Source of the DNA: Halocafeteria seosinensis
Lineage: Eukaryota > Sar > Bigyra > Bicosoecida
DNA length: 64,000 bases
NCBI GenBank assembly: GCA_001687465.1
Contig: LVLI01000003.1
Coordinates: forward strand, 27,304-91,303
Reading direction: 5' to 3'
The translations under genes were made by a program, and so were the position numbers. Shown piece by piece: positions 41,023-56,247 of the stretch. The notes under the pieces are model-generated. The model searched no databases, was not told the origin of the DNA, and saw only the letters and a program-made list of their open reading frames with translations. The number at the start of each line of letters is the position of its first letter. Position 1 is the stretch's first letter.

Positions 41023-41056
41023 TATACCATAGGATGCAGAAATAAGGGCCGATTCT
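41023..41056 (+). repeat. Left terminal inverted repeat
   Basis: 34 bp; core GGATGCAGAAATAAGGGCC. It matches the reverse complement of 42863-42896 at 33 of 34 positions. Confidence 0.93.
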
Positions 41057-41281
41057 CTCGTAACTTGAAGTTGCAAATTTTCAGATGTCAATTTAAAGGG
41101 CCGATTCTACAAAACGGTCATATTTGGATTATTTGAGGGTGTTTGATGGATTGTAAACCATCAAGATATAAAGAAAATACATTTGCATTGTACTATATTT
41201 CTCTTACATGGATTATATTTCCATAGGAGTGGAGAAAATGGATGGGACAGTCTCGTGGCTCGACTGCGCGCCAAAAATTGG

Positions 41282-42130
41282 CTAAAAAGCACTAACGTGG
41301 TCCTCCTGGAGAGATGACGCATGCTTCCAGGTGTTTTCAGTGTATGTATAACCTTTCCACTTGACAAGAAGGTGCTGTTCTTCTTTGTCTTTCTGCAAGA
41401 AGCTCTCCACATCAAACTGGCTAGGTGGTAAGTCATGCGCACATGGATCCGAATCCGACTGTTCCTCTTGGTCAATGGCCTCTTGCAGCTGCTTTACAAG
41501 AAAGGATTTTCGGAACCCTAGCACCGGTAAACCCCTTGCTTTGTACATTAGCTCTAACTCAGAACGGGTCATGCAAGAGGATCTCCCAGTATGACCGCTT
41601 GACCTGGAAGAAGTCGGGCGGCCAAATGCTTCGATTCTTCAATGGCTGCGCAATGCTCCGATGGTCCGCGCTGTTGGTACGTATTATATTCCCAGTCTTT
41701 GTGTAAAATCCATGTTTCAAATGTGGGAAGCAATTTGCCGCAGACTGTTCGATCCCGAAAGTGATGGTACGCGACGAAATTCGCTAAGGGCAGAATTGCT
41801 TTGTTTAGCAAGTTTTCCAGAATGCAATTGCGCCCCATCCGTTCGCTTAGATACAGCTCTCTTGCAGCTCCCCCGAAGCCGGCCTCATCTGCGTCGTCTT
41901 GAGATTGTCTGCAGGATATCAGTTCTTAACTTGTCCGCTACAACACCGAACACGCTCAAATCGCAAGGCTGCAGTTTGCAGGTTATACGGGCCGGAATGT
42001 AGCTCAACCCAATCAGTGGATACTTAACTGATTGTGGATACTTTCCTTGCGGAATGACTTTCTGGTGTGCACGGGTGGAGCGCCTTTTGGCAATCCGGGA
42101 ATAATGGCAGGAGTCTGACCACATGCTCAT
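41282..42130 (-). pseudogene. Broken pogo-like DDE transposase with SAP and chromodomain
   Basis: Three minus-strand ORFs in different frames lie in order: 42130-41885, 41838-41569 and 41572-41282. The first contains ITCKLQPCDLSVFGVVADKL, the segment around the second/third catalytic position of DDE_1 (pogo/Tigger/CENP-B-like) endonucleases. The second (AILPLANFVAYHHFRDRTVC) looks like its continuation. The third begins with a SAP-like helix-turn-helix (MTRSELELMYKARGLPVLGF) and continues with a chromodomain (FDVESFLQKDKEEQHLLVKW, then KGYTYTENTWKHASSL). Sequence between 42131 and 42862 probably held the N-terminal part but is too decayed to read. A spliced gene is an alternative, but I could not join the frames. 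Confidence 0.65.
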
Positions 42131-42862
42131 TCAATTTGGCCACGATTTACTCTTCAGACATCCAGTGGTCGATATTACTCTCATTTATGTATGCATGAAG
42201 TATTCGTATTTCGCCGAATAGCCGTGCCATGCGGCCTTATTGGGACGAAACGGAGATAGTTTGTTTTGGTGGGAACAACAACATGGGTCAACAGCAGTTC
42301 TCCACACGCATTCACCACGGGAGTCATGGTGGTCTGTCTTTTCTCGCTTGACGCAAGAAAGGAAGCAGGTTCAGTTCCCGCATAAATCGTCGTCTTCTAC
42401 TTGCACCCGCTGCGGAGTAGAATTCTACATTCTTTCGTCCCTGGTACAAGTAGGTAAGAAGCGGCAATCTACACTCCAGGGTTATTATGGTTACTGAGGA
42501 TGAATGTGATAGGTTCTCGTGCGTCAGAGCTGCCTACGACTCCTGGAAGGCGTGTGAGATGTGTGACTAAAGCTCGGCAGTCGAACTTCACAGTGTACAT
42601 TTTTCCGCAACGGGTTCGCGAACGTTCTGGACGTTCGCAACTTCAACCATCCCAAGGGGGAGGCAAAGGGGACACACAAAATGACCCCTGGCCACTTTTT
42701 CAGCCCTCTTGAGACCAAGAAATCGGGCAATATCTTTATAACCAGAAATGCTTTGAAAGCAAAAATTTGACAGAGTACATAAAATATGATTGCCTTCCTC
42801 ATGGTATTGCTCTCTATCCAATTGAAGACCTGAATAAAGGCGGCAATAATAAGGGCACATTT

Positions 42863-42896
42863 AGAATCGGCCCTTATTTCTGCATCCTAGGGTATA
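42863..42896 (-). repeat. Right terminal inverted repeat
   Basis: 34 bp, inverted copy of 41023-41056; core GGCCCTTATTTCTGCATCC. It is immediately followed by AT-rich viral sequence. Confidence 0.93.
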
Positions 42897-42897
42897 T

Positions 42898-43305
42898 AAC
42901 CAAGAGGCAGAAGCGAAACCAGTTGAATTCTTTTGGAACAAGAATATGAACACCAAACCCAAATTTAAGGTTGGGACAAATGTAAGAATTAGCAGAGTTA
43001 AAGGGAAGTTTGAGAAAGAAGTAAGTCAAAATTGGAGTGAAGAGATTTTTCGAATAAGTGAAGTAAAAAAGACAGATCCACCCACGTATAAAATTCAGGA
43101 TATAGAAACAGGTGAAGAAATCGAAGGTATTTTCTATGAACCGGAGCTTCAGGCGACTCGAGTAGATCCACAACAATACTTAGTTGAAAAAGTTATTAAA
43201 ACAAGAAAAAGAAAGGGACAACCGAAAGAAGTATTGGTCAAATGGTTGGGATTTCCGGACTCAAGAAATACCTGGATTCCAGCTAGCGAAGTTAAAGACA
43301 TTTAG
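42898..43305 (+). pseudogene. C-terminal fragment of a retroviral-type (rve) integrase with chromodomain
   Basis: The frame is open from 42865 and becomes integrase-like at about 42898; the first Met is at 42946. The SH3-like DNA-binding region reads PKFKVGTNVRISRVKGKFEK, then NWSEEIFRISEVKKTDPPTY, and is followed by a chromodomain (QYLVEKVIKTRKRKGQPKEV, LVKWLGFPDSRNTWIP). This arrangement is characteristic of Polinton/Maverick integrases. The catalytic DDE core is absent because the frame runs into the terminal repeat of the neighbouring transposon. The fragment is unlikely to be functional. The chromodomain would tether the integration complex to modified chromatin. Confidence 0.8.
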
Positions 43306-43325
43306 AAGAATAAAAAAAACACTAT

Positions 43326-43378
43326 GGTTCTTTTTGACTCTACTTTTTCTTGGAAAGAAAAAGAGAATATTTCTTAGA
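43326..43378. terminator. Hairpin element H, copy 1
   Basis: Contains TTCTTTTTGACTCTACTTTT followed by an imperfect inverted repeat (CTACTTTTTCTT / AAGAAAAAGAG). A near copy lies at 46269-46316. Located just after the integrase fragment and before the ankyrin/RING gene; a transcription end signal is inferred. Confidence 0.5.
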
Positions 43379-43392
43379 ATAGTATATAGAAA

Positions 43393-44169
43393 ATGGAAGA
43401 TGAAAAAGATAACCTACATATTGGAATAGAACCAGGTGTTTACAAAATGATCATTTCGGTTGAAGAATTGCGAGAAGTCAAATATTTTTTGAATAAAGGA
43501 GCTGACAAAGAATTGGTTATTATTCAAAGTGTATTAAACGGAGACTTAGAAATATTTAGGTATTGTATTGAACAAGGAGCAACAATAAGCTTTATATTTC
43601 CGTTTTTGTATGCGAAAGCTATAGAAGAGAAACAAAAAGATATTTTAAGGGAACTTTTTGAGTATCATTGTCCAAAGTATAAACAAAAAGATTTTTTACT
43701 TGATGCACTTCACGGAGCGATTGAAAACTGCTTTAAAGAAGGTGTTAAGTATTTAATTGAAAAAGGGGCTTCTGTTCCAAATATCAGTGGCAGGAAAATC
43801 ACAAATTATATTAAAAAAGAAAGAGATGATTTCTTTGATTATGTTGAAATTTTTAGTTATCTGTTTTCTGCTGGTTTAGAACTAACTAAGCTTAAGAAAA
43901 AGCAAAAATTGATTTTCTTCTCTGGCTTAGTTGATTTAAGTTGGCAGAAGCATAATCACAAAAGATTTTTAGAGAATCGAGGTTTTGAAATTATAAACAA
44001 CTTTTTCTATCAAACATATCCACATTTGAAAAACAGTGACGAAAATTGTATGATTTGTTTTGATAATGAAGTTAATAGGAAAACTTTAAATTGTCATCAC
44101 ACACATGTTATATGCATAAATTGCCTAAATCATATGACAGCTTGTCCACTAGATGGGATACTCATATAA
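43393..44169 (+). CDS. Ankyrin-like repeat protein with C-terminal RING-like finger
   Basis: 258 aa, intronless. The N-terminal 180 residues show degenerate ankyrin-type units (VKYFLNKGADKELVIIQSVL, YCIEQGATISF, GVKYLIEKGASVPNISG). The C-terminus is a RING-like finger: CMIC, then NCHHTHVICINC and CPLD. It matches a C3HC4 layout except that the eighth ligand position is Asp rather than Cys, four residues from the stop. If active it would be a ubiquitin ligase that redirects host ubiquitin, as ankyrin/RING and ankyrin/F-box proteins of large DNA viruses do. Preceded by AGTATATAGAAA and the element H hairpin; followed by element R1. Confidence 0.7.
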   Translation: MEDEKDNLHIGIEPGVYKMIISVEELREVKYFLNKGADKELVIIQSVLNGDLEIFRYCIEQGATISFIFPFLYAKAIEEKQKDILRELFEYHCPKYKQKDFLLDALHGAIENCFKEGVKYLIEKGASVPNISGRKITNYIKKERDDFFDYVEIFSYLFSAGLELTKLKKKQKLIFFSGLVDLSWQKHNHKRFLENRGFEIINNFFYQTYPHLKNSDENCMICFDNEVNRKTLNCHHTHVICINCLNHMTACPLDGILI

Positions 44170-44179
44170 CATACTTTTT

Positions 44180-44246
44180 AATCTCGACGAACGTTAGTTC
44201 TAGAGATAAGAAAATTTCTTAAACCAAAGGTTTGGCGAAAGTTTTA
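44180..44246. terminator. Palindromic intergenic element R, copy 1
   Basis: About 67 bp with three nested inverted repeats: CTCGACGAAC..GTTCTAGAG, TAAGAAAATTTCTTA and AAACC-AAA-GGTTT. It lies between the ankyrin/RING and lipase genes. Copies are at 44972-45028 and, inverted, at 46184-46250. Placement after gene ends suggests a transcription terminator or RNA-processing site. Confidence 0.65.
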
Positions 44247-44259
44247 CCTAATTGTTATA

Positions 44260-44973
44260 ATGAAATTAGGTAAAAAATTAGGTTCAGCTTTTAAATTGGG
44301 CGTGAATTTTAGCGACCCCATTGGAAACCAAAGAATAGGAAGAAACATAAGTGAACTATTTAGCTTTGATAGAGGAAACGTTGACGAATTAAATACAAAT
44401 GAAAAGCTAAGTGTGTTAATGAGCTCACAAGCTTATAAAAAAGTTCAAGACCGTGAAAATGTAAGTGACTTTAGATATATAGAGCAACTAAGCAACCAAT
44501 TTACAGCAGTCTATTTTAAAGCTGAAACAAATACTTTATTTATTGCTTTCAAAGGTACAAGCACAATTGGCGACGTTTTTACAGATATTGAGTTTGCAAG
44601 TGGTGCAGAAAATATAAGTGTTAGTTTTAATAATGCTCTGGCAACTTTTGACGCTGTTGTTCAAAATATTCGACCTTCAAAAGTTTATCTATGTGGGCAT
44701 TCTCTTGGTGGTGGATTTAGTTTATTTGTAAACATGCGTAGGGAAGATATTAGCCACACTTATGCAATAAATCCAGCTTTTAACCTTACAAATATAGCAC
44801 AATCGCTTAAAAATTCACAAATCAAAAGCGTAACAATTTTAAAAACCCCAGATGATGCAGTGAGTTTTTTAAGTTTATTTTCTCGTTTCAATGTTAAAAC
44901 TATCCCAGTACCTGAGCCAAATATTATTGGAAATCATCAATTAGGAACTTTTATGGATTTGGCGAATATTTAA
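44260..44973 (+). CDS. Class-3 (triacylglycerol-type) lipase
   Basis: 237 aa alpha/beta hydrolase of the lipase-3 family. The oxyanion/substrate strand TLFIAFKGTSTIGDVFTDI and the nucleophile elbow GHSLGGG (Ser148) are clear. The Asp in KTPDDAVSF and the His in GNHQLGTF near the C-terminus complete the triad. The N-terminus is short and basic (MKLGKKLGSAFKLG) with no convincing signal peptide. Lipase-3 genes recur in Polinton-like viruses and virophages, where membrane disruption during entry or exit is the usual proposal. Its TAA stop is the first base group of element R copy 2. Confidence 0.85.
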   Translation: MKLGKKLGSAFKLGVNFSDPIGNQRIGRNISELFSFDRGNVDELNTNEKLSVLMSSQAYKKVQDRENVSDFRYIEQLSNQFTAVYFKAETNTLFIAFKGTSTIGDVFTDIEFASGAENISVSFNNALATFDAVVQNIRPSKVYLCGHSLGGGFSLFVNMRREDISHTYAINPAFNLTNIAQSLKNSQIKSVTILKTPDDAVSFLSLFSRFNVKTIPVPEPNIIGNHQLGTFMDLANI

Positions 44974-45028
44974 TCTCGTCGAACTTTAGTTCTAGAGATA
45001 AGAAAATTTCGTTTTAGCGAAAGTTTTA
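44972..45028. terminator. Palindromic intergenic element R, copy 2
   Basis: Same orientation as copy 1 but slightly shorter (the AAACC-GGTTT stem is reduced). It begins inside the lipase stop codon and separates convergent genes. Confidence 0.65.
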
Positions 45029-45063
45029 AGTAGTTTGGTTTTGAAATTACTTAAAATGATAAA

Positions 45064-45900
45064 TTAAAGACCTTTAAACAATTTTTTAAGTTGATTATTT
45101 TGGGGTTCTGGTTGAGGATTTGCAGAAGCTGGAGTTGTTCCAATATTTGAAGTTGGTCTTCGTCTTGAATTTCGACTTGGCTGTTTCATTTCAGAGTAAC
45201 CAAAACGACTAAATGGGTCACTTGGATTTGTGCTTAATGGTCTTGGATTTTCTGGAATTGTTTGAGAATATGGATTATATGGCTCATTAGTTGGTCTTTG
45301 TGGTTGTGGAATGGGATATGGTTGCGGTTGTGGTTGAGTATAATCATATAAATTTCCTTGTGGTTCTGGGTAATATTGTGGTGTTGCTGTTGGTTGCAAT
45401 TGTGGTTCATATCTTGCTCCATATAACTGATTGGGATCAACGTAATTTATTGAACTTTGGTTTTGATTTGGATTTTGATAATACGGAGAATTTGCGTAAC
45501 ATGCTGGGTGTGTCATTTGTGGGTTATATGTTTGATTATTTTGCTGTTGTTGTTTCTGTTGTCTTCTTTCTTCTGCTTTTTTTCGTCTTCCTTCTTTCAT
45601 TCTTTCAATTGCTCTTTCTCTTGCTGGTGTCATTTTCCTTTTATATTGTTTCCCATTCTCTTTTGGTTTCTCTTCTTCTGCTGGTTTTTGTGGTTGTTGC
45701 TGTGGTTGATTTTGTTGAATCATTAACCTTTGTAATTGTTGAGGAGTTAAACTTATTTTATTAGAAGTTTGGCTTGATGTTTCTGGTTGTGATACTTGTT
45801 TGGTTTCCTCATTTTCCTCACTACGTCCTTCTTGCTGTGCTAACATTCGGTTTATAGTCTCTACGTCTAATTCTACGTTTTCATCGTTTTCGTTACTCAT
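45064..45900 (-). CDS. Gln/Pro-rich, highly charged protein
   Basis: 278 aa, intronless. An acidic head (NENDENVELDVETINRML) is followed by a Gln-rich tract, a basic segment (KRKMTPARERAIERMKEGRR) and a long Pro/Gln/Tyr/Asn-rich tail. Such proteins in small dsDNA viruses are often core or scaffold components that bind DNA through the basic part; that is inference. The AT-rich box TACATATATAGTATAAC precedes its ATG. Divergent from the small ORF at 45972 across 71 bp, which must hold both promoters. Confidence 0.65.
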   Translation of the reverse strand: MSNENDENVELDVETINRMLAQQEGRSEENEETKQVSQPETSSQTSNKISLTPQQLQRLMIQQNQPQQQPQKPAEEEKPKENGKQYKRKMTPARERAIERMKEGRRKKAEERRQQKQQQQNNQTYNPQMTHPACYANSPYYQNPNQNQSSINYVDPNQLYGARYEPQLQPTATPQYYPEPQGNLYDYTQPQPQPYPIPQPQRPTNEPYNPYSQTIPENPRPLSTNPSDPFSRFGYSEMKQPSRNSRRRPTSNIGTTPASANPQPEPQNNQLKKLFKGL

Positions 45901-45971
45901 CGTTATACTATATATGTAAATTTTAATTCTATAACGTATTACGTAAAATGTAATTTTTTGTTATAAATATA
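45901..45971. promoter_or_regulatory. Bidirectional AT-rich promoter region
   Basis: 71 bp between divergent viral genes, with TACTATATATGTA on one side and TTATAAATATA directly upstream of the other ATG. It fits the TATATA pattern seen before the other viral genes. Confidence 0.5.
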
Positions 45972-46163
45972 ATGAATAGTGAACAAGAGACCCAAGAAAA
46001 AGAGAAACCTTCACCAATCACTTACGAAGAGTTACTTCAAAAATATCCACCTGAATATTTGGACCAAATTGAGGGTTTGCAACCAGTTCCAGAAGTTACA
46101 AATGAGGAGATTAATAAAATGCTTAAAAATTACGAAACTCAAAAGAAACTGGGTAATATATAA
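45972..46163 (+). CDS. Small acidic protein, 63 aa
   Basis: Intronless, helical and charged (EELLQKYPPEYLDQIEGLQ, then EINKMLKNYETQKKL). Preceded by TTATAAATATA. No family recognised. Position between two structural-type genes suggests a virion or assembly factor. Confidence 0.55.
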   Translation: MNSEQETQEKEKPSPITYEELLQKYPPEYLDQIEGLQPVPEVTNEEINKMLKNYETQKKLGNI

Positions 46164-46183
46164 ATACCTTTTTCCCAAAAAAG

Positions 46184-46250
46184 TAAAACTTTCGCTAAAC
46201 CNAAGGTTTAAGAAATTTTCTTATCTCTAGAACAAAGTTCGTCGAGATTA
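46184..46250. terminator. Palindromic intergenic element R, copy 3 (inverted)
   Basis: Reverse complement of copy 1, 21 bp after the stop of the small protein. It contains one ambiguous base (N at 46202). Confidence 0.65.
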
Positions 46251-46268
46251 AAATCAAAAAACTATAAC

Positions 46269-46316
46269 GCTTCTTTTTGACTCTACTTTTTCTACGCAAG
46301 AAAAAGAGAAAATTTA
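46269..46316. terminator. Hairpin element H, copy 2
   Basis: Repeats TTCTTTTTGACTCTACTTTT and the AAGAAAAAGAG arm of copy 1 (43326-43378). Directly upstream of the major capsid promoter. Confidence 0.5.
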
Positions 46317-46341
46317 ATTTATATATAATATATATATAATA
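46317..46341 (+). promoter_or_regulatory. TATATA box of the major capsid gene
   Basis: A run of TATATA repeats ends 3 bp before the ATG at 46342. It is the strongest example of the motif found before the viral genes; a late promoter is inferred. Confidence 0.55.
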
Positions 46342-47781
46342 ATGTCAAGTTTAGATCAACAGCCACTATCAAATGTTGGACAAGCTCAACCACAAGGAGA
46401 ATCTCAAGGCTTACAACCTGAACCACCTCAAAGAAGTGGATTAAATAGGAGAGATGTGCACTTTGATCCCAAATTGCAAAGCTCAAATTTTAAAACACTT
46501 GAAAACTTAAGTTCTCGGCAGTCTGTTCGCATAAATCCAGAAGCCGGATTGGGTGACTATAATCCTGGTTCAACTGTAGAGTGGACAATTCAAAACACTT
46601 CAGCTCTCTCGGATACTCAAAACAGTCATTTAGAATTTGATTTTGTTAATTCTAACCCTGGTGACAATATTCCATCGGATGGTTTAGATGTTTTACTTGA
46701 TAATTTAGAACTTCAAATTGGTGACCAAACAATTGAAAAAGTTTCAGATGGAGCAAGATATTACCAAATGTTATTGAGATCAACCGCACACCAAAGCTAT
46801 TACGATAATGAAGCAAATGCACTCATGAAATCTTGGAAATATTTGAGTTATCATAAAAAATATAATGTTGTTCATCCTGCTAATAGTTATGATGATAGCA
46901 GTGATGATAATAACACTAACATCATGACCGCTTATTATTCAGCTAATGGAACTATAAAATGTATTATACATTTGGATAACTTAAGTTTTTTCCGTCAAGC
47001 AAGGTTTAAACCAATGTTCACAGCTATTAAACTCAGTTGGAAATTGCCGGAAGCTCAAAAAGTAATGGAAAGAAGACGTGATAATAATGCCCAAAATGCT
47101 CCTTCATATACCGTTAGAAATCCAGTTTATATAAGTTCCCAAGTTTATCCAGATGCTTCATTATTGGAAAGTCTTCATTCTCAAATTTTTGAAAATCAAC
47201 AAGGGTTAGCAATGGCACTACCCGGAGTTGTGGAAACTTATCGAAGAAGTTTGTCGCAATCTACACAAAATAATATTACTATTCCGGCATCTTTCTCAGA
47301 TATTGAAAGTATTATATGTTTACCTGTTAGAAGAGCAACTTCAAGTACAACAGATGATATAAATGTAGGTACGTTTAGAACAGGTAATAATGTCACACTT
47401 AAAAATTTTGGTGTTAATATTCAAACCGAAGATTTAGCAATGAAAGGAGGTTATAGAAACATGGAAGAAGCTTATAGAGGTTTAAGACAAACTTTTAATT
47501 TCTTGGGAGATGTTGGCGGAAATGGTATGATTGATTGGGATACATTCAACGCAACACTTGGAAATGGTGGCTTTGCGCCTTTGGCAGTCAATACAAGTTT
47601 GTTAATGCATGCACCTCCCGAAGTTTTATCAAATGGACTGAGTACGCAAGATATGGGTAGTCAAATTAATATAAATCTTGAAACTGAAAATAATATTGGT
47701 GGTAATATGGATTTGCTTGTTTTTGTTTTGCATAAACGTATTTTGATGATGCAACAAGGTATTATTAAGATTGGTATTTAA
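46342..47781 (+). CDS. Major capsid protein, double-jelly-roll type (probable)
   Basis: 479 aa, intronless. After a polar Gln-rich leader the protein reads as alternating beta strands: GSTVEWTIQNTSALSDTQNS, HLEFDFVNSN, LEVLLDNLELQIGD-like strands (LDVLLDNLELQIGDQTIEKV), then IKCIIHLDNLSFFRQARFKP. The last is typical of the first-to-second jelly-roll region in Polinton/PLV capsid proteins. The C-terminal part ends in hydrophobic strands (NMDLLVFVLHKRILMM). Size, position next to the packaging ATPase and penton, and strand pattern support a hexon-like double jelly roll that trimerises into the capsid shell. Remote similarity only, so structure prediction would be the clean test. Confidence 0.78.
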   Translation: MSSLDQQPLSNVGQAQPQGESQGLQPEPPQRSGLNRRDVHFDPKLQSSNFKTLENLSSRQSVRINPEAGLGDYNPGSTVEWTIQNTSALSDTQNSHLEFDFVNSNPGDNIPSDGLDVLLDNLELQIGDQTIEKVSDGARYYQMLLRSTAHQSYYDNEANALMKSWKYLSYHKKYNVVHPANSYDDSSDDNNTNIMTAYYSANGTIKCIIHLDNLSFFRQARFKPMFTAIKLSWKLPEAQKVMERRRDNNAQNAPSYTVRNPVYISSQVYPDASLLESLHSQIFENQQGLAMALPGVVETYRRSLSQSTQNNITIPASFSDIESIICLPVRRATSSTTDDINVGTFRTGNNVTLKNFGVNIQTEDLAMKGGYRNMEEAYRGLRQTFNFLGDVGGNGMIDWDTFNATLGNGGFAPLAVNTSLLMHAPPEVLSNGLSTQDMGSQININLETENNIGGNMDLLVFVLHKRILMMQQGIIKIGI

Positions 47782-47820
47782 AATGTTAAGAAAATTTTGA
47801 ACTATGATATATAGATCAAA

Positions 47821-48891
47821 ATGACACATTTCTTTAAACATAATCGTGGAACATTTGACATAAAAGGTTTTCATAAAAGTGACAATTTTGAGACTGTTGA
47901 TGAGTCTCTTGCCACAGTTAATCAATCAAAAAGAGGTGGAAGAACTATTTTAGAACCTTTTTATAAAGAACGTCAAAACGGTTATGAATTTTGTGGGCAA
48001 GAAGGCTTACAACCAAGAAAAGAATTTATTCAACCACTAGAACAATCTAATTTTGTAACTCCTCCTTTAGAGTATCAAACACGATTGAGAGCTGGTAGAA
48101 ATATACCAAAATGGTATGGACATTTTCAAGGTCCTGGAATTCCTGAGCCTGAAGTTCCTATCGGCAATAAATACTTTAAAAATTATCAGCAAGACGTTCC
48201 GCTTAGTGATTTGGCTCGCGATTTCTTTCGTACTGGCATAGGTGCTTTAAATAATACTCCTCCTATGCGAGATAGACAAAGTTTAATAAACTTTTTGCAA
48301 CAATCTGGTTTATTTAGAGAAGAAGACGAAAATAAAAGTCTGGCTTCACTTGCTCAAAAAATACAAGAACAGAGCGGACGAGCTGGAGCACCTGAAAACC
48401 CTTTTAATAATGATCCTGTTTTTAGTCAAATTTTGCAACGTATTCGCAGTAATCCACAAGTTACCAATTTAACACCTCAACAACTTCAACATCGTCAGGC
48501 AGTTGCCCAACAAAATCAAGCAAATCAAGAATTTCAACAAGGAGCACAACAGCAACAAACTCAACAACAAACTCAGCAACCGGCGAGAGGTTTTAATTTT
48601 GATTCTGATCCTTCTAGCTCATCATTTCCAGCACCTAATTCTGGTGCACAGCCTCAAGAACAAGTAGCTCCAGAATCTAATCAAAGTATAGAACGAGCAC
48701 CACGATTTGGGAGAACTGAAAACGGACGCCAAGAAGTTATTACCACTCTTAATGGTCGTGAAGTTAGAGGCTGGGTCGGTGATAGAGGTGGTATATACTC
48801 CAATGCGACAAGTCGAAATACAATACCACCAGTTTCAGCACATAGGCGAGCTATTAAAAACGCTTTTGAACGATTAAGACAAAATGGTTAA
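47821..48891 (+). CDS. Uncharacterised probable virion protein, 356 aa
   Basis: Intronless, between the capsid and ATPase genes and preceded by ATGATATATAGATCAAA. The N-terminal half looks ordered (GRTILEPFYKERQNGYEFCG, IPKWYGHFQGPGIPEPEVP); the middle is strongly Gln-rich (FQQGAQQQQTQQQTQQPARG) and the C-terminus is basic. No homologue recognised. Synteny with capsid genes makes a structural or core protein the likely role. Confidence 0.6.
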   Translation: MTHFFKHNRGTFDIKGFHKSDNFETVDESLATVNQSKRGGRTILEPFYKERQNGYEFCGQEGLQPRKEFIQPLEQSNFVTPPLEYQTRLRAGRNIPKWYGHFQGPGIPEPEVPIGNKYFKNYQQDVPLSDLARDFFRTGIGALNNTPPMRDRQSLINFLQQSGLFREEDENKSLASLAQKIQEQSGRAGAPENPFNNDPVFSQILQRIRSNPQVTNLTPQQLQHRQAVAQQNQANQEFQQGAQQQQTQQQTQQPARGFNFDSDPSSSSFPAPNSGAQPQEQVAPESNQSIERAPRFGRTENGRQEVITTLNGREVRGWVGDRGGIYSNATSRNTIPPVSAHRRAIKNAFERLRQNG

Positions 48892-48912
48892 AAATTTATC
48901 TACATTATATAA

Positions 48913-49896
48913 ATGCCGAATTGGATTTCGATCTTATCGAATAAAAAAAAGAAAGAAAATAGTTTTCGTTATGTTGTTGTTGGTGGTACTCGATCCGGAA
49001 AATCCACACTTTTACATAATTTAATCTTTAAATTACATAAATCAGAAATTAAACGCGTAGTTTTATTTGGTGGTAAATCTGCTTCAAATGAGGAAATGAA
49101 AGATATCTTTAAAAAGGAAAAACCTCCTTTTGATTTGGAAATACATAAAAATTATAATGATGAAAAAGTTGGAGAAATTTTTAAACAAATTGAAACAGAC
49201 AAAACAAAAAGAAGTGGAAAACAAACAGTTTTTATATTCGAAGATTTAATGGCAGAAAACGCCAGCAACAAAACTAAAAATAATAATATCGATCGTGTAA
49301 TTAAGAACGGAGGTGAGTTAAATATTTCTTCGATTATAACAACCCAAAAATATACTGACGTTAAAACATCAACTAGAAGCGGAAATATTAGCAAACTTTT
49401 TTTATTTGAGATCCCTGATAATGAAATTACTCTCGTTCATCGAGAACAAAACTTAAAAATTGGGAAAGATGATTTTAAAAAAATAGCTAGCGAAGCAACC
49501 GAAACAAAATACGAGTTCATTATAATAGATCAAAAAGCTGAAATCAATGAAAAACTGAAAGATAGCGACTTTAACGTTATCAAACCCGAAGAAAAAGAAG
49601 ATAAAAAAGAAGATGAAGCCGAAGTTTTAAAAGGAAAATCAGCAAAAAAGGCAAAACCCACAAAAGTTAATTTGGTTAAATTTCTAAAACCTGGTAAAGA
49701 TGACAATGAAGCAAAGTTTTACGCTATCTTTCAAGTAGGAAAGGAAATTAAAAAAGTCCCAGTGGGTGACAATGTGAAAGGTAATGGAAATGTGTCAGAT
49801 CCTACAAACCCAGAAGTTTTAGTTAAAGAACTGCTAAACAGAAATAAACCTTTTAAAGAAAATTTGAAACAGTTTCGAGAAAAATTTAATGTCTAA
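48913..49896 (+). CDS. Genome-packaging ATPase (FtsK/HerA type)
   Basis: 327 aa, intronless. Walker A is GGTRSGKST at residues 24-32, preceded by strand FRYVVV; Walker B is TVFIFEDLMAE near residue 104. An arginine-containing segment follows (ISSIITTQKYTDVKTSTRSG). This is the A32/FtsK-HerA-type motor used by Polintons, PLVs, virophages and nucleocytoplasmic large DNA viruses to pump genomic DNA into the capsid. The C-terminal 120 residues are Lys/Glu-rich with no ATPase motif and may dock to the capsid vertex or DNA. The start is 17 bp after the previous stop and the AT box CATTATATAA precedes it. Confidence 0.85.
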   Translation: MPNWISILSNKKKKENSFRYVVVGGTRSGKSTLLHNLIFKLHKSEIKRVVLFGGKSASNEEMKDIFKKEKPPFDLEIHKNYNDEKVGEIFKQIETDKTKRSGKQTVFIFEDLMAENASNKTKNNNIDRVIKNGGELNISSIITTQKYTDVKTSTRSGNISKLFLFEIPDNEITLVHREQNLKIGKDDFKKIASEATETKYEFIIIDQKAEINEKLKDSDFNVIKPEEKEDKKEDEAEVLKGKSAKKAKPTKVNLVKFLKPGKDDNEAKFYAIFQVGKEIKKVPVGDNVKGNGNVSDPTNPEVLVKELLNRNKPFKENLKQFREKFNV

Positions 49897-49929
49897 ATTT
49901 TACTTTTTACCAAAAAAGTAAAAAACTAT

Positions 49930-50745
49930 TTAACTTCTTGGTATGAAGAAGTACTCAAATTCGAGCACCACATTACCCCCATTTAACTCCATTTGATTAT
50001 ACTCCTCATCAATTATAGCGAAATCAATAACTTCTAAATCATCATTCACTATACTAGAAAATGTTTGTTCGTCGCTATATTCGCGAACTAATTCATCACC
50101 AAAAGAAACATCATTAAAAATCGAAGCTATAATAGGCTGGTTTCTACTCTTAACTAATTTATAATTTTGTGTGTCTCCAAGTGTGTTTGATATTATATGA
50201 TACACAGCAGTATTTAATAATTTGGGTAATCCAGCAACATCAAATGTTTCACCTCCTGAAATTTTATGTTGGGTGCTGTCTCTTATAATCCCAATTTTAT
50301 GATGTGCCGAGTTTTCTAAAGTTACCGTTTGAAATATAGGATTTAAAAAGGTGTTAATAATATAAAAAGGCTCACTATCAGCATTTGTAAAACTAAACCT
50401 TTGTTTAGATTCATTAAAAACAGCAGTTATATTATGTCCCCTATTAGCAAAAAAATTATTCATAAAGTCTTCTAGTTCTGTCCCATCTTGATAAACTCGA
50501 TCAGTATCAAATTTTAATTCTGTTAAATTTGGACCACTATCCAATTCCCTAACATAATATAAAACATTGTTGTATTCTGAAAATGTATAGGCAGTATTTG
50601 GCAGAGCTACTTTTTTAAGTCCTATTTTTACATTTGATTTTAAAGAACTAATAGCCTCCTTCAGATAAACACTGAAATCCGAATTTGAGTCATTTGTTTG
50701 TCTATCTATTCTTGAGTTTATTGTTAATCTAAATTTATTTGACAT
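49930..50745 (-). CDS. Minor capsid / penton protein (probable single jelly roll)
   Basis: 271 aa, intronless, minus strand. The N-terminus has the pattern of Polinton/PLV pentons: FRLTINSRIDRQTNDSNSDF followed by VYLKEAISSL, VKIGLKKVALPNTAYTFSEY and NNVLYYVREL. The rest is beta-rich and ends EYFFIPRS. Pentons occupy the capsid vertices. Convergent with the ATPase gene, 33 bp apart; that gap holds a short inverted repeat (TTTTACTTTTT / AAAAAAGTAAAA), a likely shared terminator. Confidence 0.78.
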   Translation of the reverse strand: MSNKFRLTINSRIDRQTNDSNSDFSVYLKEAISSLKSNVKIGLKKVALPNTAYTFSEYNNVLYYVRELDSGPNLTELKFDTDRVYQDGTELEDFMNNFFANRGHNITAVFNESKQRFSFTNADSEPFYIINTFLNPIFQTVTLENSAHHKIGIIRDSTQHKISGGETFDVAGLPKLLNTAVYHIISNTLGDTQNYKLVKSRNQPIIASIFNDVSFGDELVREYSDEQTFSSIVNDDLEVIDFAIIDEEYNQMELNGGNVVLEFEYFFIPRS

Positions 50746-50756
50746 CTATATATTTA

Positions 50757-51413
50757 TTATAAATTTTCTGGTATATAGTTCCATCCTATTTTTTCACATA
50801 TTAATTTCCACATATAATTAGCATTCTGCAAACCCTTCATATTTACATAACAATGTTTTACATTAAGGTACTTTATTACCCATTTTTCTTCTATTAATTC
50901 TAAAAGTTTCCTTAAAATAAAATTATAATTTGGTAAGTTGTACCTTTCGTTCGGTCTGGCGTATGTCCAATTTATTTCTATTCTCTTGAACATTCTCAAT
51001 AATTTATCTTCTATATGTTTACTTATCGGTTCTGGTCTATATCCTGTTAATTTATAATAAATAACTGAAATATGTGGATAATACATTGTTTTTCGTTTAC
51101 TTTTTAAGTATTTATAAATTGTTTCATGCTTATAATTTAAATTTCTCTCTTGATGATATTTTTCAATTTCATTCATTAATCTCCTTGTNATTTGTCTGGT
51201 TTCAATTCCTTGCATTGATAAAATTATTCTATGGAAATTATGGGTTTGAATGCTGTCCACCTTTCTCATATACAATTTGGGTTGTGCCTCTATATATTGA
51301 TCTTCTATAAACGGTCTTTCTTCGCAAATTATTCCACATTTTGAATTGGTGCAACTATATGAACTTTCATCATTCAAAGCTAAACTTTTCTTTTTACATT
51401 CTGGACATTGCAT
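50757..51413 (-). CDS. VLTF3-like late transcription factor
   Basis: 218 aa, intronless, 11 bp upstream of the penton gene on the same strand. It starts with a zinc ribbon (CPEC at residues 3-6 and CTNSKC in the early 20s). The C-terminal half contains the phrase YNLPNYNFILRKLLELIE, the signature of poxvirus late transcription factor 3 (A2-like) proteins found in NCLDVs and many PLVs. It would direct the viral transcription machinery to late promoters, consistent with the TATATA boxes here. One ambiguous base (51189) leaves one residue undetermined. Confidence 0.8.
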   Translation of the reverse strand: MQCPECKKKSLALNDESSYSCTNSKCGIICEERPFIEDQYIEAQPKLYMRKVDSIQTHNFHRIILSMQGIETRQXTRRLMNEIEKYHQERNLNYKHETIYKYLKSKRKTMYYPHISVIYYKLTGYRPEPISKHIEDKLLRMFKRIEINWTYARPNERYNLPNYNFILRKLLELIEEKWVIKYLNVKHCYVNMKGLQNANYMWKLICEKIGWNYIPENL

Positions 51414-51456
51414 TATATATAGTTTTAAGAAAAAGATAATTTATATATAGTATATA
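51414..51456. promoter_or_regulatory. Bidirectional late-promoter-like spacer
   Basis: 43 bp between the divergent VLTF3 and 36-aa genes. ATATATAG lies next to the minus-strand ATG and ATATATAGTATATA directly before the plus-strand ATG. Confidence 0.55.
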
Positions 51457-51567
51457 ATGAAAGTTGGCAAAAATCCGCAAGACATCCAAAAAGCTGGTGA
51501 AAAAGCTAAAAGAATGCTTCGTTTAGGTGAATCCGCTCTAGAAGCTTTTCAAAGACTGAAATCTTAA
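51457..51567 (+). CDS. Tiny basic amphipathic protein, 36 aa
   Basis: ORF with an ideal TATATA box abutting its ATG. The product is one predicted amphipathic helix (IQKAGEKAKRMLRLGESALE). Small basic helical proteins in adintoviruses and adenoviruses (pVI/pX-like) bind DNA or lyse membranes; this comparison is by size and character only. Confidence 0.55.
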   Translation: MKVGKNPQDIQKAGEKAKRMLRLGESALEAFQRLKS

Positions 51568-51591
51568 TATGGAACTGGTTAACGTTCTATA

Positions 51592-51744
51592 TTAATCTTG
51601 TTCTTTATGCTCTTGTTCTTGTTCGCTATTTCCTATATGCATTCGACAATCACTATTAAACATATTATCCTTTAGCAACTTAGATAAAAAACCAAATACT
51701 AAACCACCTATAGCACTTAATGTAGGTACTAAAGCATCAACCAT
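51592..51744 (-). CDS. Tiny membrane protein, 50 aa
   Basis: Begins MVDALVPTLSAIGGLVFGFL: one hydrophobic Gly-containing helix, then a polar tail ending EQEQEHKEQD. ATTATAGAA lies just before the ATG. Convergent with the 36-aa gene. A virion-membrane or holin-like role is possible but unproven. Confidence 0.5.
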   Translation of the reverse strand: MVDALVPTLSAIGGLVFGFLSKLLKDNMFNSDCRMHIGNSEQEQEHKEQD

Positions 51745-51833
51745 TTCTATAATATATTACAACAATTAGTTCATTTATATTAAACTTCTTGACACTAACT
51801 AATAAAATTTAATGCACTAATATATAAAAGAAT

Positions 51834-54574
51834 ATGTCGTACATATCAACAACCAAATCAAACAATGTTAGTGTAGGAGAAGGCTTAAAAAAAGATGGGG
51901 CGAAAATTACTTTTGATAATGAATTGTTGTTCACCAAAACAGAAGTTCTACAAAAAATTGACGAACACGCTACCCAAGACGCTGATTTAAATAATTATTA
52001 TACCAAAACCGAGGTTGACAACGAATTCACCAACTTTAATAATAATATCAATACACTTTTAGATAATGAGTATTACGACCAATCACATATTGATACAAAT
52101 TTTTATACGAGTGCTCAAGTGGATACTAAATTAAACGATGAGTATTACGACAAATCACACATTGACGCAAATCATCTTACAACATCAAAAACAGTAGATA
52201 CTATTAACGCTAACTTAGAGGATTATTATGATAAGGCCGAAATAGACACAAATTTTTATAATAAAATAGAAGTTGATGATAAATTAGACCTAGCAAAATT
52301 TCAGTTCACTAGTTATGAAATAGAGGATATTCGAGATTTTTGGGCTTTTAATGATACATTCACAGAAGACTACGAAATCAATAGTGAGGTTACTGGTGGA
52401 AATCTCCTTAAAATAAAGAGTGGTTCACTCAATGTTGGAACAATAGCAAACCAGTTAAGAGCTTATTATTCATTTGATGATGTTAATAATCCTTTTGAAG
52501 ATAGTATAGGTTCTTTTAACGGTACTAATAACGGTGGAGTTATTACAAGCAATGCAAAGATAGATAAAGGTGTTTCATTTAGTAATGGTGATACATTTAT
52601 TAACGTTGGTTCAGTTCTAGGTTATACTACGGAAGATTTTACAGTTGCGTGTTGGTTTTATCCTACAACTGATAGTGATAATCAAATGTTATATAATGTT
52701 GGTAGCTCATCACAAGATGCTCAAAGTCATCTAATATACAATTTTTCACCAAATAAAATATCTTTTAGAGATGTTAATAATAATAATCAAATTGATTCAG
52801 TTACTGATATTTCATTAAATCAGTGGTATTATATTACAGTAACGAGAGTAGGAACTAGCCTTAATATATATATTAATGGTCAATTAGATAATACTGGTAC
52901 GGTTACTAGTGGTACATTATCAGACCCTTCAAACAATAGTACAATCTCTAGAGGAGCTACTGGTATACTTAATGATGGTCGTATTGATGAATTTGGTATT
53001 TTTGTTTAGAGAGCTATCAGATAGTGAAATTGATTTTTTATATAATAGCGGAAACGGTGGAAATATAAGTGAAATTGTTGGTGATTTTTTACAAAGTACT
53101 GAAGGACTACGGGTTAATGCTTTTCATCAAGTTGAGGACGTTTATTTAGAAGATGTGGATAAAACCCAAAACACTATTCAATAATATTTCCTATTTAATG
53201 TGGATTGGTGACAGTGCTGAAACAGCTATTTCAAATAAGCAATTGTTTATCAGTTATGATAAAACAGATGATTCTATCCGAATAACCGGAAATAATGCAA
53301 CAACAGCTACTAAAGAATTAACTTTAGATACTTGGGCTCACTTAGCCTTAGTAGTTGACAAAGCAAACGATAATGTTAAACTCTATGTTGATTCTGTTGA
53401 AACATTACAAATTAATGGTTTAGAAGCTTCAATCGGAACAACTCTAAGGTTAGGTGGTGGTTATTTAGATGGGAGCGGAAATCCAGTTGGAACATCTGAA
53501 ACGGTCTTTGATAAAGTTTTATTCTTCACTCGTCCTTTGAAAGAGTTTGATATAAAGAATTTGTATCAAGTAAGAGGTCAATTTAATTTAAACCAAATAC
53601 CAACCGCTCATTTTTATTATAAAAATGATGTTGATTCTAATTTTCTTAAGACAGATGGAACTAATAATATGACTAATAATTTGGACCTATCAAATAATAA
53701 AATTGTTAACTTAAATCCCCCAACAAATCCAAAAGACGCAACTAATTTAAGTTATCTTGAACAAAATTATTATAATAAAAATACAGCCGATTTTTTATAT
53801 CTTTTTAGGGATGGAGGCAATTCAATGGAGGGTGATTTAACTTTTGCTAATGGTGCTAGTATAACTTTAAATGATACTGATATGGATGCGGTAAACAATA
53901 AAATAATTAATGTTAATGACCCAACTTTTGATAGGGATGTGGTTAATTTACAATTTGCGAATAGTAATTATTTAAGTCTTGACGGTTCTAATTCTATGAC
54001 ATCAAATATAGATGCAGGTAATAATAAACTTATTAATGTAAATGATCCCACTAGTAATAAGGATGCTGTTAATTTACAATATTTTAATTCAAATCAAACT
54101 GGATCTTTACCCAAGGTTTATAAATTTACACAATCGAGCACGCCAACAATTAGCAATGGAAGTACTGAAACATTACAAAAAATTAGTGCCGGTTTACCAT
54201 TGAATTATTATTATTGTCATGTAGAACTAATAATATCAGTTGATGAAAATGAAACTGGAGTAACTGAGGAATTTACTGCAACATACAGTATAACTGATGA
54301 TGTAGGAACAAATAACGATCCCATTCAATCTTTAGCCCATTGGAATCCGGGTCTTGGTGGTTCAACTGGTGCTTATTCTCAAACGTTTTCTGGTGTAACA
54401 AATGACCCACAATATAAAAACTTTTATTTTACTTTTGATATAATAACAGATGAAACTGAAAATTTAACATTTACATTTGATGTAACAAATAACTCTGGTA
54501 GTAGTACTGATGTGAATTTTATGCAACATAAAGTTAGAGCACACGCAATAAAAACACCTTCACAATTTCCTTAA
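51834..54574 (+). pseudogene. Receptor-binding fibre with LamG domains, split by two frameshifts
   Basis: Three overlapping frames follow each other: 51834-53009, about 52990-53184 and 53153-54574. The first carries tail-fibre-type repeats (NNYYTKTEVD, EYYDQSHID, EYYDKSHID, DYYDKAEID) and a LamG/concanavalin-like lectin domain (LRAYYSFDDVNNPFEDSIGS, EDFTVACWFYP) that is cut off at the stop. The second holds its last strands. The third holds a second LamG unit (DTWAHLALVVD) and further fibre repeats (FLKTDGTNNMTNNLDLSNNK, YLSLDGSNSMTSNIDAGNNK). Repeat and lectin order argue for one original protein of about 900 aa. Both shifts lie next to homopolymer runs (T5 near 53000, A4 near 53160), so sequencing error is as likely as decay. 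Confidence 0.75.
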
Positions 54575-54822
54575 TTTATATAATACTAAAAACTAGTATT
54601 ATATTTATTCTTTCAACGTGACAACTTTTGAAATTTCCCATTGAGAAGTGTGTAAGTAATTTCGATGGAAAATTACAAACTTATAGAAGTGTAAAAGACG
54701 GGTTCAGCCACTGTTAATTAAACAGAAGTTATACACTATAGTTTTTTAAAAAATTTCCCATTGTAAAACCTGTAATGTATTTTTACCCGATGAAGTACAC
54801 TTATGATTATTTACATGTCGCT

Positions 54823-55090
54823 TTACGGTTGCACCTTGACAACGTTCTGGTTTTTAGCGTTGACAATCGTTTACCTCTCTCACTGCTATTTGTCAACTCT
54901 ATCTTCTGTTTTTGTATGGTTACACTTTCTTCTTGACAACACTTTACTTTCTTGCATTGACACCCTTGCAATCTCCCACAATGCTGTTTGTCAACTTTAA
55001 CTTCTGTACATGACAGCTTACGGTTACTTCTTGACAACGCTTTGTTTTTATGCTAATTACCCATGCAATGTTTCAATGGTGTTTGGTGGG
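54823..55090. repeat. Tandem repeat, period 97-98 bp, about 2.7 units
   Basis: Units are aligned on CTTGACAAC at 54835, 54932 and 55030. Each is preceded by a GGTT-type segment, and the first two have a second TTGACA-like element about 28 bp later and TGTTTGTCAAC/TATTTGTCAAC at the end. TTGACA/TGTCAA therefore recur in both orientations. Located at the right edge of the viral island. Confidence 0.75.
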
Positions 55091-56247
55091 CTTGGGCTTA
55101 GCTACAAAGCATTTCGTTAAGGTGTGCCATCCATAGACATTGTACTCTACTTGCCCTATCAAATAATTACCATCTACATGATACGTTGAGGTGTGAAACC
55201 TTTCGGAATGTGACGCATCAATATTATTGACTGGTTGGTCATGCAAGTACAGTACCGCCGGGGGTATTTACGCTTTGGTTCCTTCGCTTCGTTATTGCCT
55301 GAGACTTGCTAACCCACACACACACTGCTACACAACTTTACCGGTACTTCCTCTACCAAGGAAAAACGCTACCAACACTTCCACCGTGTATCGACTGCCG
55401 CTGGCACTGCTGTCATCTGGAAGCAGAGCAACGACACCGCATCTATCTGGGGTTCTCCTACCGCTCACTCGGAAGGGAAAACGGAGGAATATGACCGGTG
55501 CCTTACTTCAAGCCGCCCGCTTGTGGGTGTAGAGTGTGGTGCCTCTGTATCTACGCGGTTTAATACTGTCCGGTACAGTTTAGTCATTACATTTTAAGCT
55601 GACAGTTTGATCGCATACAATAACAAAACAAGTTTTTTCTCATCAGACCTTTACGCTTCCGAACTTCACTTCAAGTCGGGAAGCGTCTCCCGCTGGGGAT
55701 CGTCGTCCATACGCATTTTATTGCTATTGTAGCATTATATGTACTGTATAATGGTGGCAAACCATTCATATACTATCTGCATGTAGTGTAATACACTCGT
55801 CCTCGATACAGTGTCTAGGGACTTGATCAACAACTACTGTACACTGTAGACAATACGAGCGGTTGATTTAAGTCCCTTTATTTCTGTCGAAGACGCCATT
55901 GCTTGGGGATGCCTCCTCTTTGGTGCCGCATTGATGAGCATCCCCACGTTTACTTCCTTGAGCTGGCAGCTAATCGTTAAAGCACAAAATTAAATGACTG
56001 TTTTTACGAAGTTCTGTTTTTGTTTCTAACTCTGACGTCGAAACTTTCTAAGTCAGAGCTTAAGTCGTTGACTCCCCAGGAAGTCGTATCGTTTTAAACA
56101 AAGTTGTCAATGATGGCAGCCCCAGTGTATACGTATTGTTAGCTAAATAATGATGGCCAAACTGTCTACAAGCTGACCACCAGATCCATGAGAAATTGGG
56201 CGCCGATATAGATTATTACATTATCGAAAGCATTGAAAGAACAGGTC
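55091..56247. other. Non-coding region right of the viral island
   Basis: Composition returns towards host values. ORFs such as 55227-55532 show no family features. An inverted repeat of about 15 bp (55817-55831 AGGGACTTGATCAAC and 55862-55877) could be the ends of a short MITE-like remnant or an RNA hairpin. No gene supported. Confidence 0.45.

What the first reader, a model, noticed from the sequence alone, without database searches (positions are those of the whole stretch)
42897..54822. A polinton-like virus with a near-complete morphogenesis module sits in the host genome
Directly seen: a sharp AT-rich island of intronless, tightly packed ORFs between intron-rich, balanced-composition host genes. 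Family knowledge: GGTRSGKST packaging ATPase, double-jelly-roll-like capsid, penton pattern, VLTF3 signature, lipase-3, chromodomain integrase tail and a LamG fibre together define the Polinton/PLV/adintovirus world. The gene complement and order are not ones I can match to a named group, so it may be a new lineage.
Basis: partly seen in the sequence, partly recalled or inferred. Interest (0 to 1): 0.88.

Follow-up and report, generated by a model that had tools for sequence, protein, structure and literature searches.

The report
Polinton-type provirus with giant-virus gene
Part of a small capsid-building virus, cut short by a jumping gene, is embedded in a microbe's genome, and its family carries a gene-switch protein that one study had reported only from giant viruses, which bears on how giant viruses arose.

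Summary
The island is real: 31.5% GC between host DNA of 48% and 47%. It runs 42897-55151, about 330 bp further right than stated, to a terminal repeat whose outer part recurs beside different flanks on three other contigs. It encodes a double-jelly-roll capsid (all 50 listed PDB matches are from such proteins, best E 8.8e-8, on a low-confidence model), penton-like protein, A32-type ATPase, VLTF3, lipase, a LamG fibre whose frame is broken, and an integrase tail cut at a pogo-like transposon. No polymerase was matched in the window; related contigs carry polymerase B and integrase. The genome holds a family of such elements. Two points go beyond the finding. (1) VLTF3 belongs to this family: 13 matches without stops, on one 15-kb contig together with polymerase, integrase and capsid, dN/dS about 0.09; a 2024 paper calls VLTF3 undetectable outside Nucleocytoviricota (PMC11253617, passages). 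(2) The fibre genes are an exchanged cassette: a sharp break at 51751/51752 against a 95%-identical sister, while the fibre is 90% identical to that of a distant element. Known kind, new variant. The left junction may be a misjoin.

The parts
41023..42896 (.). pogo/Tigger-like DNA transposon with 34-nt inverted ends and TA target site, abutting and cutting the provirus; repeated in the genome
   Evidence: 49 matches, the window's own and partial ones included (97-99% on C20, C300, C176, the last two partial); the name rests on recalled features
42946..43305 (+). C-terminal tail (chromodomain) of an rve-type integrase, cut on its N side
   Evidence: PF00385 3.1e-11; 20 matches in the genome, own included; rve on C345 and, just under cut-off, on C429
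43393..44169 (+). ankyrin-repeat + RING protein
44260..44973 (+). class-3 lipase-like protein, possible membrane-penetration enzyme
   Evidence: PF11187 1.2e-7, PF01764 1e-4; similar in C429 and C147
45064..45900 (-). Pro/Gln-rich protein of unknown role, similar in C429
46342..47781 (+). double-jelly-roll major capsid protein
47821..48891 (+). conserved protein p356; lies between capsid and ATPase in the window, C429, C147 and C367
48913..49896 (+). A32/FtsK-type genome-packaging ATPase (GGTRSGKST)
   Evidence: PF04665 2.3e-11; 16 matches in the genome, own included
49930..50745 (-). penton / minor capsid protein (tentative)
50757..51413 (-). VLTF3-like late transcription factor with N-terminal cysteines of a zinc ribbon; one ambiguous base
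   Evidence: PF04947 57.6 bits, cut-off 25; 13 matches in the genome; dN/dS about 0.09
51752..54813 (+). exchangeable fibre module: LamG1 51834-53009 (frame broken) and LamG2 53153-54574
   Evidence: PF13385; different genes in C301, shared at 90% nt with C429; frame break
54626..55151 (+). terminal repeat region with outer end near 55151

Best explanation
The island is the right-hand part of an integrated Polinton-type virus (polymerase B, rve integrase, terminal repeats and double-jelly-roll capsid in its family) that has many relatives in this host. Most likely life cycle: the integrase inserts the linear genome; polymerase B copies it from the terminal repeats, probably protein-primed (inferred); genes with a TATATA-like element just before the start codon are transcribed late with the help of the virus's own VLTF3 (inferred), using a host or a co-infecting giant virus's RNA polymerase (open; no RNA polymerase was seen in what was read); capsid, penton and ATPase build and fill the particle; LamG fibres bind the host and the lipase helps entry (inferred). 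Fibre genes move between lineages as a cassette (shown by alignment). The copy in this window is defective as assembled: cut at a pogo-like transposon and with a broken fibre frame.
For: Gene calls; capsid fold; one 15,077-bp contig, C429, with polymerase B, rve-like integrase, penton, VLTF3, ATPase, p356, capsid, lipase and LamG fibre; shared terminal repeat with different flanks on the 4 contigs aligned, of 5 matched; 13 VLTF3 matches without stops, 12 of them on contigs that also match capsid, ATPase, integrase or polymerase; dN/dS 0.07-0.45 in 10 of 10 gene pairs; TATATA within 45 nt of the start in 22 of 51 genes, shuffles mean 8.3, maximum 15 of 300; fibre exchange; C345 polymerase matches 5 tectivirus-like phage polymerases at 22% identity, E 3e-3 to 8e-3.
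Against: Capsid and penton models are poor (pLDDT 43.8 and 47.9), so the fold rests on local similarity with low TM-scores. The rve match of C429 is just under Pfam's cut-off (31.0 against 32.6; the C345 piece, 42.6, is above). The window's fibre frame is broken, by decay or by assembly error. No maturation protease was matched in the island. Terminal repeats of C345 and the window are 83% alike and the six bases beside them differ, so the two do not look like the ends of one insertion. On C550 the last few bases of the repeat diverge, and on C301 the outside is also AT-rich. TATATA shows no clear excess in the C147 and C88/C367 groups (1 of 8, 2 of 11). In one search the strongest hit was a mycobacteriophage endonuclease VII (1e-4), not a polymerase.
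Confidence: 0.8

Rival explanations
1. It is a small relative of giant viruses (mriyavirus-like Nucleocytoviricota) that captured an integrase and polymerase, rather than a Polinton-type virus that has VLTF3.
For: VLTF3 and A32-type ATPase; giant-virus capsids are among the best fold matches.
Against: About 12 kb here and a broad gene set on one 15-kb contig, against 35-45 kb (range from the abstract in the listing); polymerase B, rve integrase and terminal repeats; no RuvC named in Pfam scans of 11 island proteins. Best PDB capsid match is Sputnik virophage, but ranking on a poor model means little.
Confidence: 0.12
2. About the left junction only, compatible with the best explanation: the window is a mis-assembly in which host sequence with one pogo copy was joined to provirus sequence beside another pogo copy, and the true provirus here is longer.
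For: The transposon is a repeat; C345 carries the same integrase tail (99.5% over 192 bp to its contig end) without the transposon; both ambiguous bases of the window lie in the island.
Against: The right junction does not depend on it; of the 11 other pogo loci fetched, none showed provirus proteins beyond short chromodomain matches.
Confidence: 0.5
3. A decayed or domesticated remnant without a viral life.
For: Truncated integrase, broken fibre frame, no replication gene in the window.
Against: Long open frames for the capsid, ATPase, penton, p356 and lipase genes; low dN/dS between family members, which speaks for the family rather than for this copy; relatives of capsid (43%) and penton (76%) in JGI and ENA data.
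Confidence: 0.15

Closest known systems
Maverick-Polintons / Polintoviricetes
   Same: polymerase B, rve integrase, DJR capsid, penton, ATPase, terminal repeats (spread over the window and related contigs)
   Different: no Ulp1-type protease matched; VLTF3 widespread in the family; capsid nearly without homologues in the collections searched
Polinton-like viruses, incl. Gossevirus (GKS1) group of oomycetes and chrysophytes
   Same: integrated in protists in many copies, often with a GC shift, lipase or LamG fibres in some (PMC10120064 parts 1-3 of 7; PMC7805220, PMC12220804, PMC4642659 passages)
   Different: PLVs mostly lack the rve integrase (PMC4642659, passages); VLTF3 has 0 occurrences in PMC7805220 and PMC4642659; relation to the Gossevirus capsid not testable here
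Mriyaviruses and Nucleocytoviricota
   Same: VLTF3, A32-like ATPase, DJR capsid
   Different: size, polymerase/integrase module; neither VLTF2 nor RuvC was named in the Pfam scans of the island
OmPLV of Oxyrrhis marina (PMC12721341, passages)
   Same: endogenous PLV without recognisable protease and with some giant-virus-type genes
   Different: tyrosine recombinase and helicase-polymerase fusion there; 'vltf' has 0 occurrences in that text

Membership tests
Polinton (pPolB + rve + MCP + mCP + ATPase) | DJR major capsid | tested here: met
   poor model, consistent matches
Polinton (pPolB + rve + MCP + mCP + ATPase) | packaging ATPase | tested here: met
   PF04665
Polinton (pPolB + rve + MCP + mCP + ATPase) | minor capsid / penton | tested here: inconclusive
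   5 BFVD matches with E up to 0.001, among them a Gaeavirus minor capsid protein and an adintovirus protein, on a pLDDT 47.9 model
Polinton (pPolB + rve + MCP + mCP + ATPase) | polymerase B and rve integrase on the same element | tested here: inconclusive
   only the integrase tail in the window; both on C429, rve just under cut-off
Polinton (pPolB + rve + MCP + mCP + ATPase) | maturation protease (most members) | tested here: not met
   none in Pfam scans of 11 island ORFs; of 20 PF02902 matches in the genome (a lower bound) only a weak one on C301 lies on a firm contig of this family, one more on C76, whose only link is a weak integrase-tail match. The left part of this element was not available
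Polinton (pPolB + rve + MCP + mCP + ATPase) | terminal inverted repeats and 6-bp target duplication | tested here: inconclusive
   terminal repeat region with a common outer part; left end missing, so neither inversion nor duplication can be shown in the window
PLV in the narrow sense (no rve integrase, no protease) | absence of rve integrase | tested here: not met
   integrase tail in the window, rve on relatives
Nucleocytoviricota / mriyavirus | VLTF3 | tested here: met
Nucleocytoviricota / mriyavirus | VLTF2 and RuvC resolvase | tested here: inconclusive
   none named in Pfam scans of 11 island proteins; the rest of the element is not in the window
Gossevirus (GKS1) group | group-specific capsid | not testable with these tools
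   no reference capsid sequences at hand

The most novel reading that the evidence does not exclude
A lineage of integrating Polinton-type viruses retains VLTF3 as an ancestral core gene, so that the late-transcription switch of giant viruses predates them, and swaps its receptor-binding fibre module between co-resident proviruses.
Probability: 0.2. Interest if true: 0.85.

Novelty: new variant of a known kind. Interest (0 to 1): 0.62.

Why it matters
VLTF3 is used as a marker gene of giant viruses (PMC12638062, passages) and has been called undetectable outside them (PMC11253617, passages). A Polinton-type family with a constrained VLTF3 weakens it as a sole marker, allows a test between capture and common ancestry, and hints at a transcription link to giant viruses. 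The fibre exchange gives a natural case of host-range module swapping among proviruses in one genome.

Tried and rejected
Scans of viral contigs with capsid, ATPase, penton and VLTF3 queries, single or as alignments, gave no relative in 7 of 7 scans, so no outside tree could be built. Protein search found 1 capsid and 2 penton homologues; the capsid alignment reached no further. PDB sequence searches with capsid and VLTF3 gave nothing credible. ATPase against phages: no match. PHROGs gave weak or fibre matches only; NCBIfam nothing over cut-off. Rfam and tRNA scans of the window: nothing. Host identity: the small-subunit rRNA search failed 7 of 7 times; no light-harvesting protein was found, so the host looks non-photosynthetic; species unknown. 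NCLDV capsid PF04451: 0 matches, but its control was silent too.

I first took C345 for the other end of the same insertion and rejected that as unproven: repeats 83% alike and flanks differ. Six motifs were tried after looking at the sequences; 51 of the 57 genes were used (6 left out by choice, some partial), and some genes are near-duplicates. A base-by-base check of the fibre breakpoint was off by one and is replaced. For this I lowered the best explanation from 0.82 to 0.80 and raised the remnant rival from 0.08 to 0.15.
Full report
Observation. The window lies on contig C2 of a 30.6-Mb, 605-contig assembly. GC is 31.5% over 42897-55151, between 48.1% on the left and 47.1% on the right.

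Boundaries. On the left, the island begins at the edge of a 1.87-kb transposon with 34-nt inverted ends. The transposon is repeated in the genome and shows a TA target site; I call it pogo/Tigger-like from recalled features. The integrase is cut at this edge to a 119-aa tail. Contig C345 carries the same tail (99.5% over 192 bp, ending at the contig end) preceded by integrase instead of the transposon. On the right, a terminal repeat region ends near 55151. One search found it on five contigs. I aligned four (C2, C301, C550, C345): the outer part is shared and each is followed by different sequence, as expected for insertion at different sites. On C550 the last few bases diverge; on C301 the outside is AT-rich too; the short match on C105 was not aligned. 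C345 and the window are not shown to be two ends of one insertion: their repeats are 83% alike and the neighbouring six bases differ.

Family. The genome has 16 ATPase, 19 capsid, 20 integrase-tail, 22 polymerase-B and 13 VLTF3 matches, the window's own included. Some are pieces of one gene or weak, so these are not counts of elements. Contig C429 (15,077 bp) carries polymerase B (PF03175 3.8e-50), an rve-like integrase (31.0 bits, cut-off 32.6), penton, VLTF3, ATPase, p356, capsid, Pro/Gln-rich protein, lipase and LamG fibre. The integrase piece of C345 scores 42.6 bits for rve. Its polymerase matches 5 tectivirus-like phage polymerases at 22% identity (E 3e-3 to 8e-3); 5 other records match by an endonuclease VII part, the strongest at 1e-4.

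Capsid and penton. Models built from two and three sequences are poor (pLDDT 43.8 and 47.9). Even so, the 50 PDB matches listed for the capsid, of 528 in all, are all from double-jelly-roll capsid or scaffold proteins: Sputnik 8.8e-8, PBCV-1 2.3e-7, mavirus 3.2e-7, then iridovirus, faustovirus, ASFV, PR772/PRD1, STIV, vaccinia D13 and an adenovirus entry (that the chains are the capsid or scaffold protein is partly recalled). TM-scores are low (by query 0.15-0.24, by target 0.09-0.26). In the viral library 37 matches have E up to 0.001, led by giant-virus capsids. The five penton matches with E up to 0.001 include a named minor capsid protein and an adintovirus protein. The capsid has one homologue in 5.8 billion proteins (43%), the penton two (76% and 35%).

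VLTF3. The window protein scores 57.6 bits (cut-off 25); 5 of 5 relatives scanned are over the cut-off (39.3-74.2). The 13 genome matches are all over it and without stops, two of them covering only the second half of the model. 12 of 13 lie on contigs that also match capsid, ATPase, integrase or polymerase (from the lists). The 13th, C301, carries the window's terminal repeat, fibre genes, a penton start and a VLTF3 94.5% identical to the window's. dN/dS is 0.09 for VLTF3 in both pairs tested (0.023/0.266 for the window against C301, my division; C88 against C367). Ten of ten pairs over six genes lie between 0.07 and 0.45, so the family diverged under selection on its proteins, as replicating viruses would.

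Literature on VLTF3. [quoted passage not shown] I searched for VLTF3 or late transcription factor together with polinton terms and read the VLTF3 passages of 8 of the 24 papers; none of these passages places VLTF3 in a PLV or Polinton. A 2017 survey (PMC5294986, passages) reports VLTF3 and other giant-virus genes in small genomic islands or alone in several eukaryotes, read there as NCLDV-derived; some of those could be relatives of this family. Unopened papers, papers not in the library and other wording remain possible.

Fibre module. Window 50608-51751 is 95.3% identical to C301 (1144 bp: penton start, VLTF3, spacer). Identity stops sharply at 51751/51752 and returns in the terminal repeat at 54814-55151 (90.8%). 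Between these points C301 has other fibre genes, on the same strand as its VLTF3, whereas in the window fibre and VLTF3 are on opposite strands. Window 51904-53146 is instead 90.2% identical to the end of C429, whose capsid, ATPase and penton are 31%, 38% and 34% identical to the window's. The simplest reading is exchange of a fibre cassette between lineages. The window's first LamG frame stops within the region where C429's protein runs on; the remainder is recognisable in another frame, so this fibre gene is broken here, by decay or assembly error. A search for papers with polinton, fiber, recombination, cassette and endogenous together gave none, a narrow search.

Promoters. TATATA occurs within 45 nt before the start in 22 of 51 genes (300 approximate dinucleotide shuffles: mean 8.3, maximum 15). 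The excess is in the window/C345 (9 of 14) and C429/C447/C294 (10 of 17) groups and not in C147 (1 of 8) and C88/C367 (2 of 11). The motif was chosen after inspection, and related genes are not independent.

Mechanism. Shown: gene content, selection within the family, shared repeat with different flanks, fibre exchange. Inferred: protein-primed replication, VLTF3-driven late transcription from the TATATA element, lipase-aided entry. Open: which RNA polymerase VLTF3 serves; a giant-virus helper would make this a virophage-like element, but nothing here tests that.

Comparison. Endogenous PLVs in many copies are well known: Bellas and colleagues report over 35,000 capsid hits in 462 protist genomes (PMC10120064; parts 1-3 of 7 read). 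LamG fibres and lipases are known in PLVs (PMC12220804, PMC4642659, passages). This is therefore a known kind; the new parts are VLTF3 as a regular gene of an rve/polymerase-B family and the fibre exchange.

Noticed in passing
window 44177-44253, 44969-45035, 46163-46253: An intergenic motif occurs twice directly and once inverted around the lipase and Pro/Gln-rich genes (81-96% alike). The lipase runs with the capsid gene in the window but against it in C429. Promoter repeats or a cassette that can invert.
   Followed up: partly
window 43309-43372 and 46252-46315; L041:3205-3274: A 64-nt element stands just before the ankyrin/RING and capsid genes and, in a relative (C88), just before a fibre gene.
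   Followed up: partly
L034:4875-5237, L036:1465-1827, L037:2411-2773: A 121-aa protein with a lysine- and glycine-rich start in the C429/C447/C294 group, not noticed in the window; perhaps a membrane-active virion peptide (guess).
   Followed up: no
L055:1600-2975: On C345 a stretch of about 43% GC with a 255-aa ORF lies between the provirus genes and the terminal repeat, perhaps another insertion.
   Followed up: no
window 46202 and 51189: Both ambiguous bases of the 64-kb window lie in the island, as expected if near-identical copies or haplotypes were collapsed.
   Followed up: partly
L057:1-1418: On C301 the DNA outside the terminal repeat is also AT-rich and repeated, with a 147-aa acidic ORF; perhaps a second adjacent element.
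   Followed up: no
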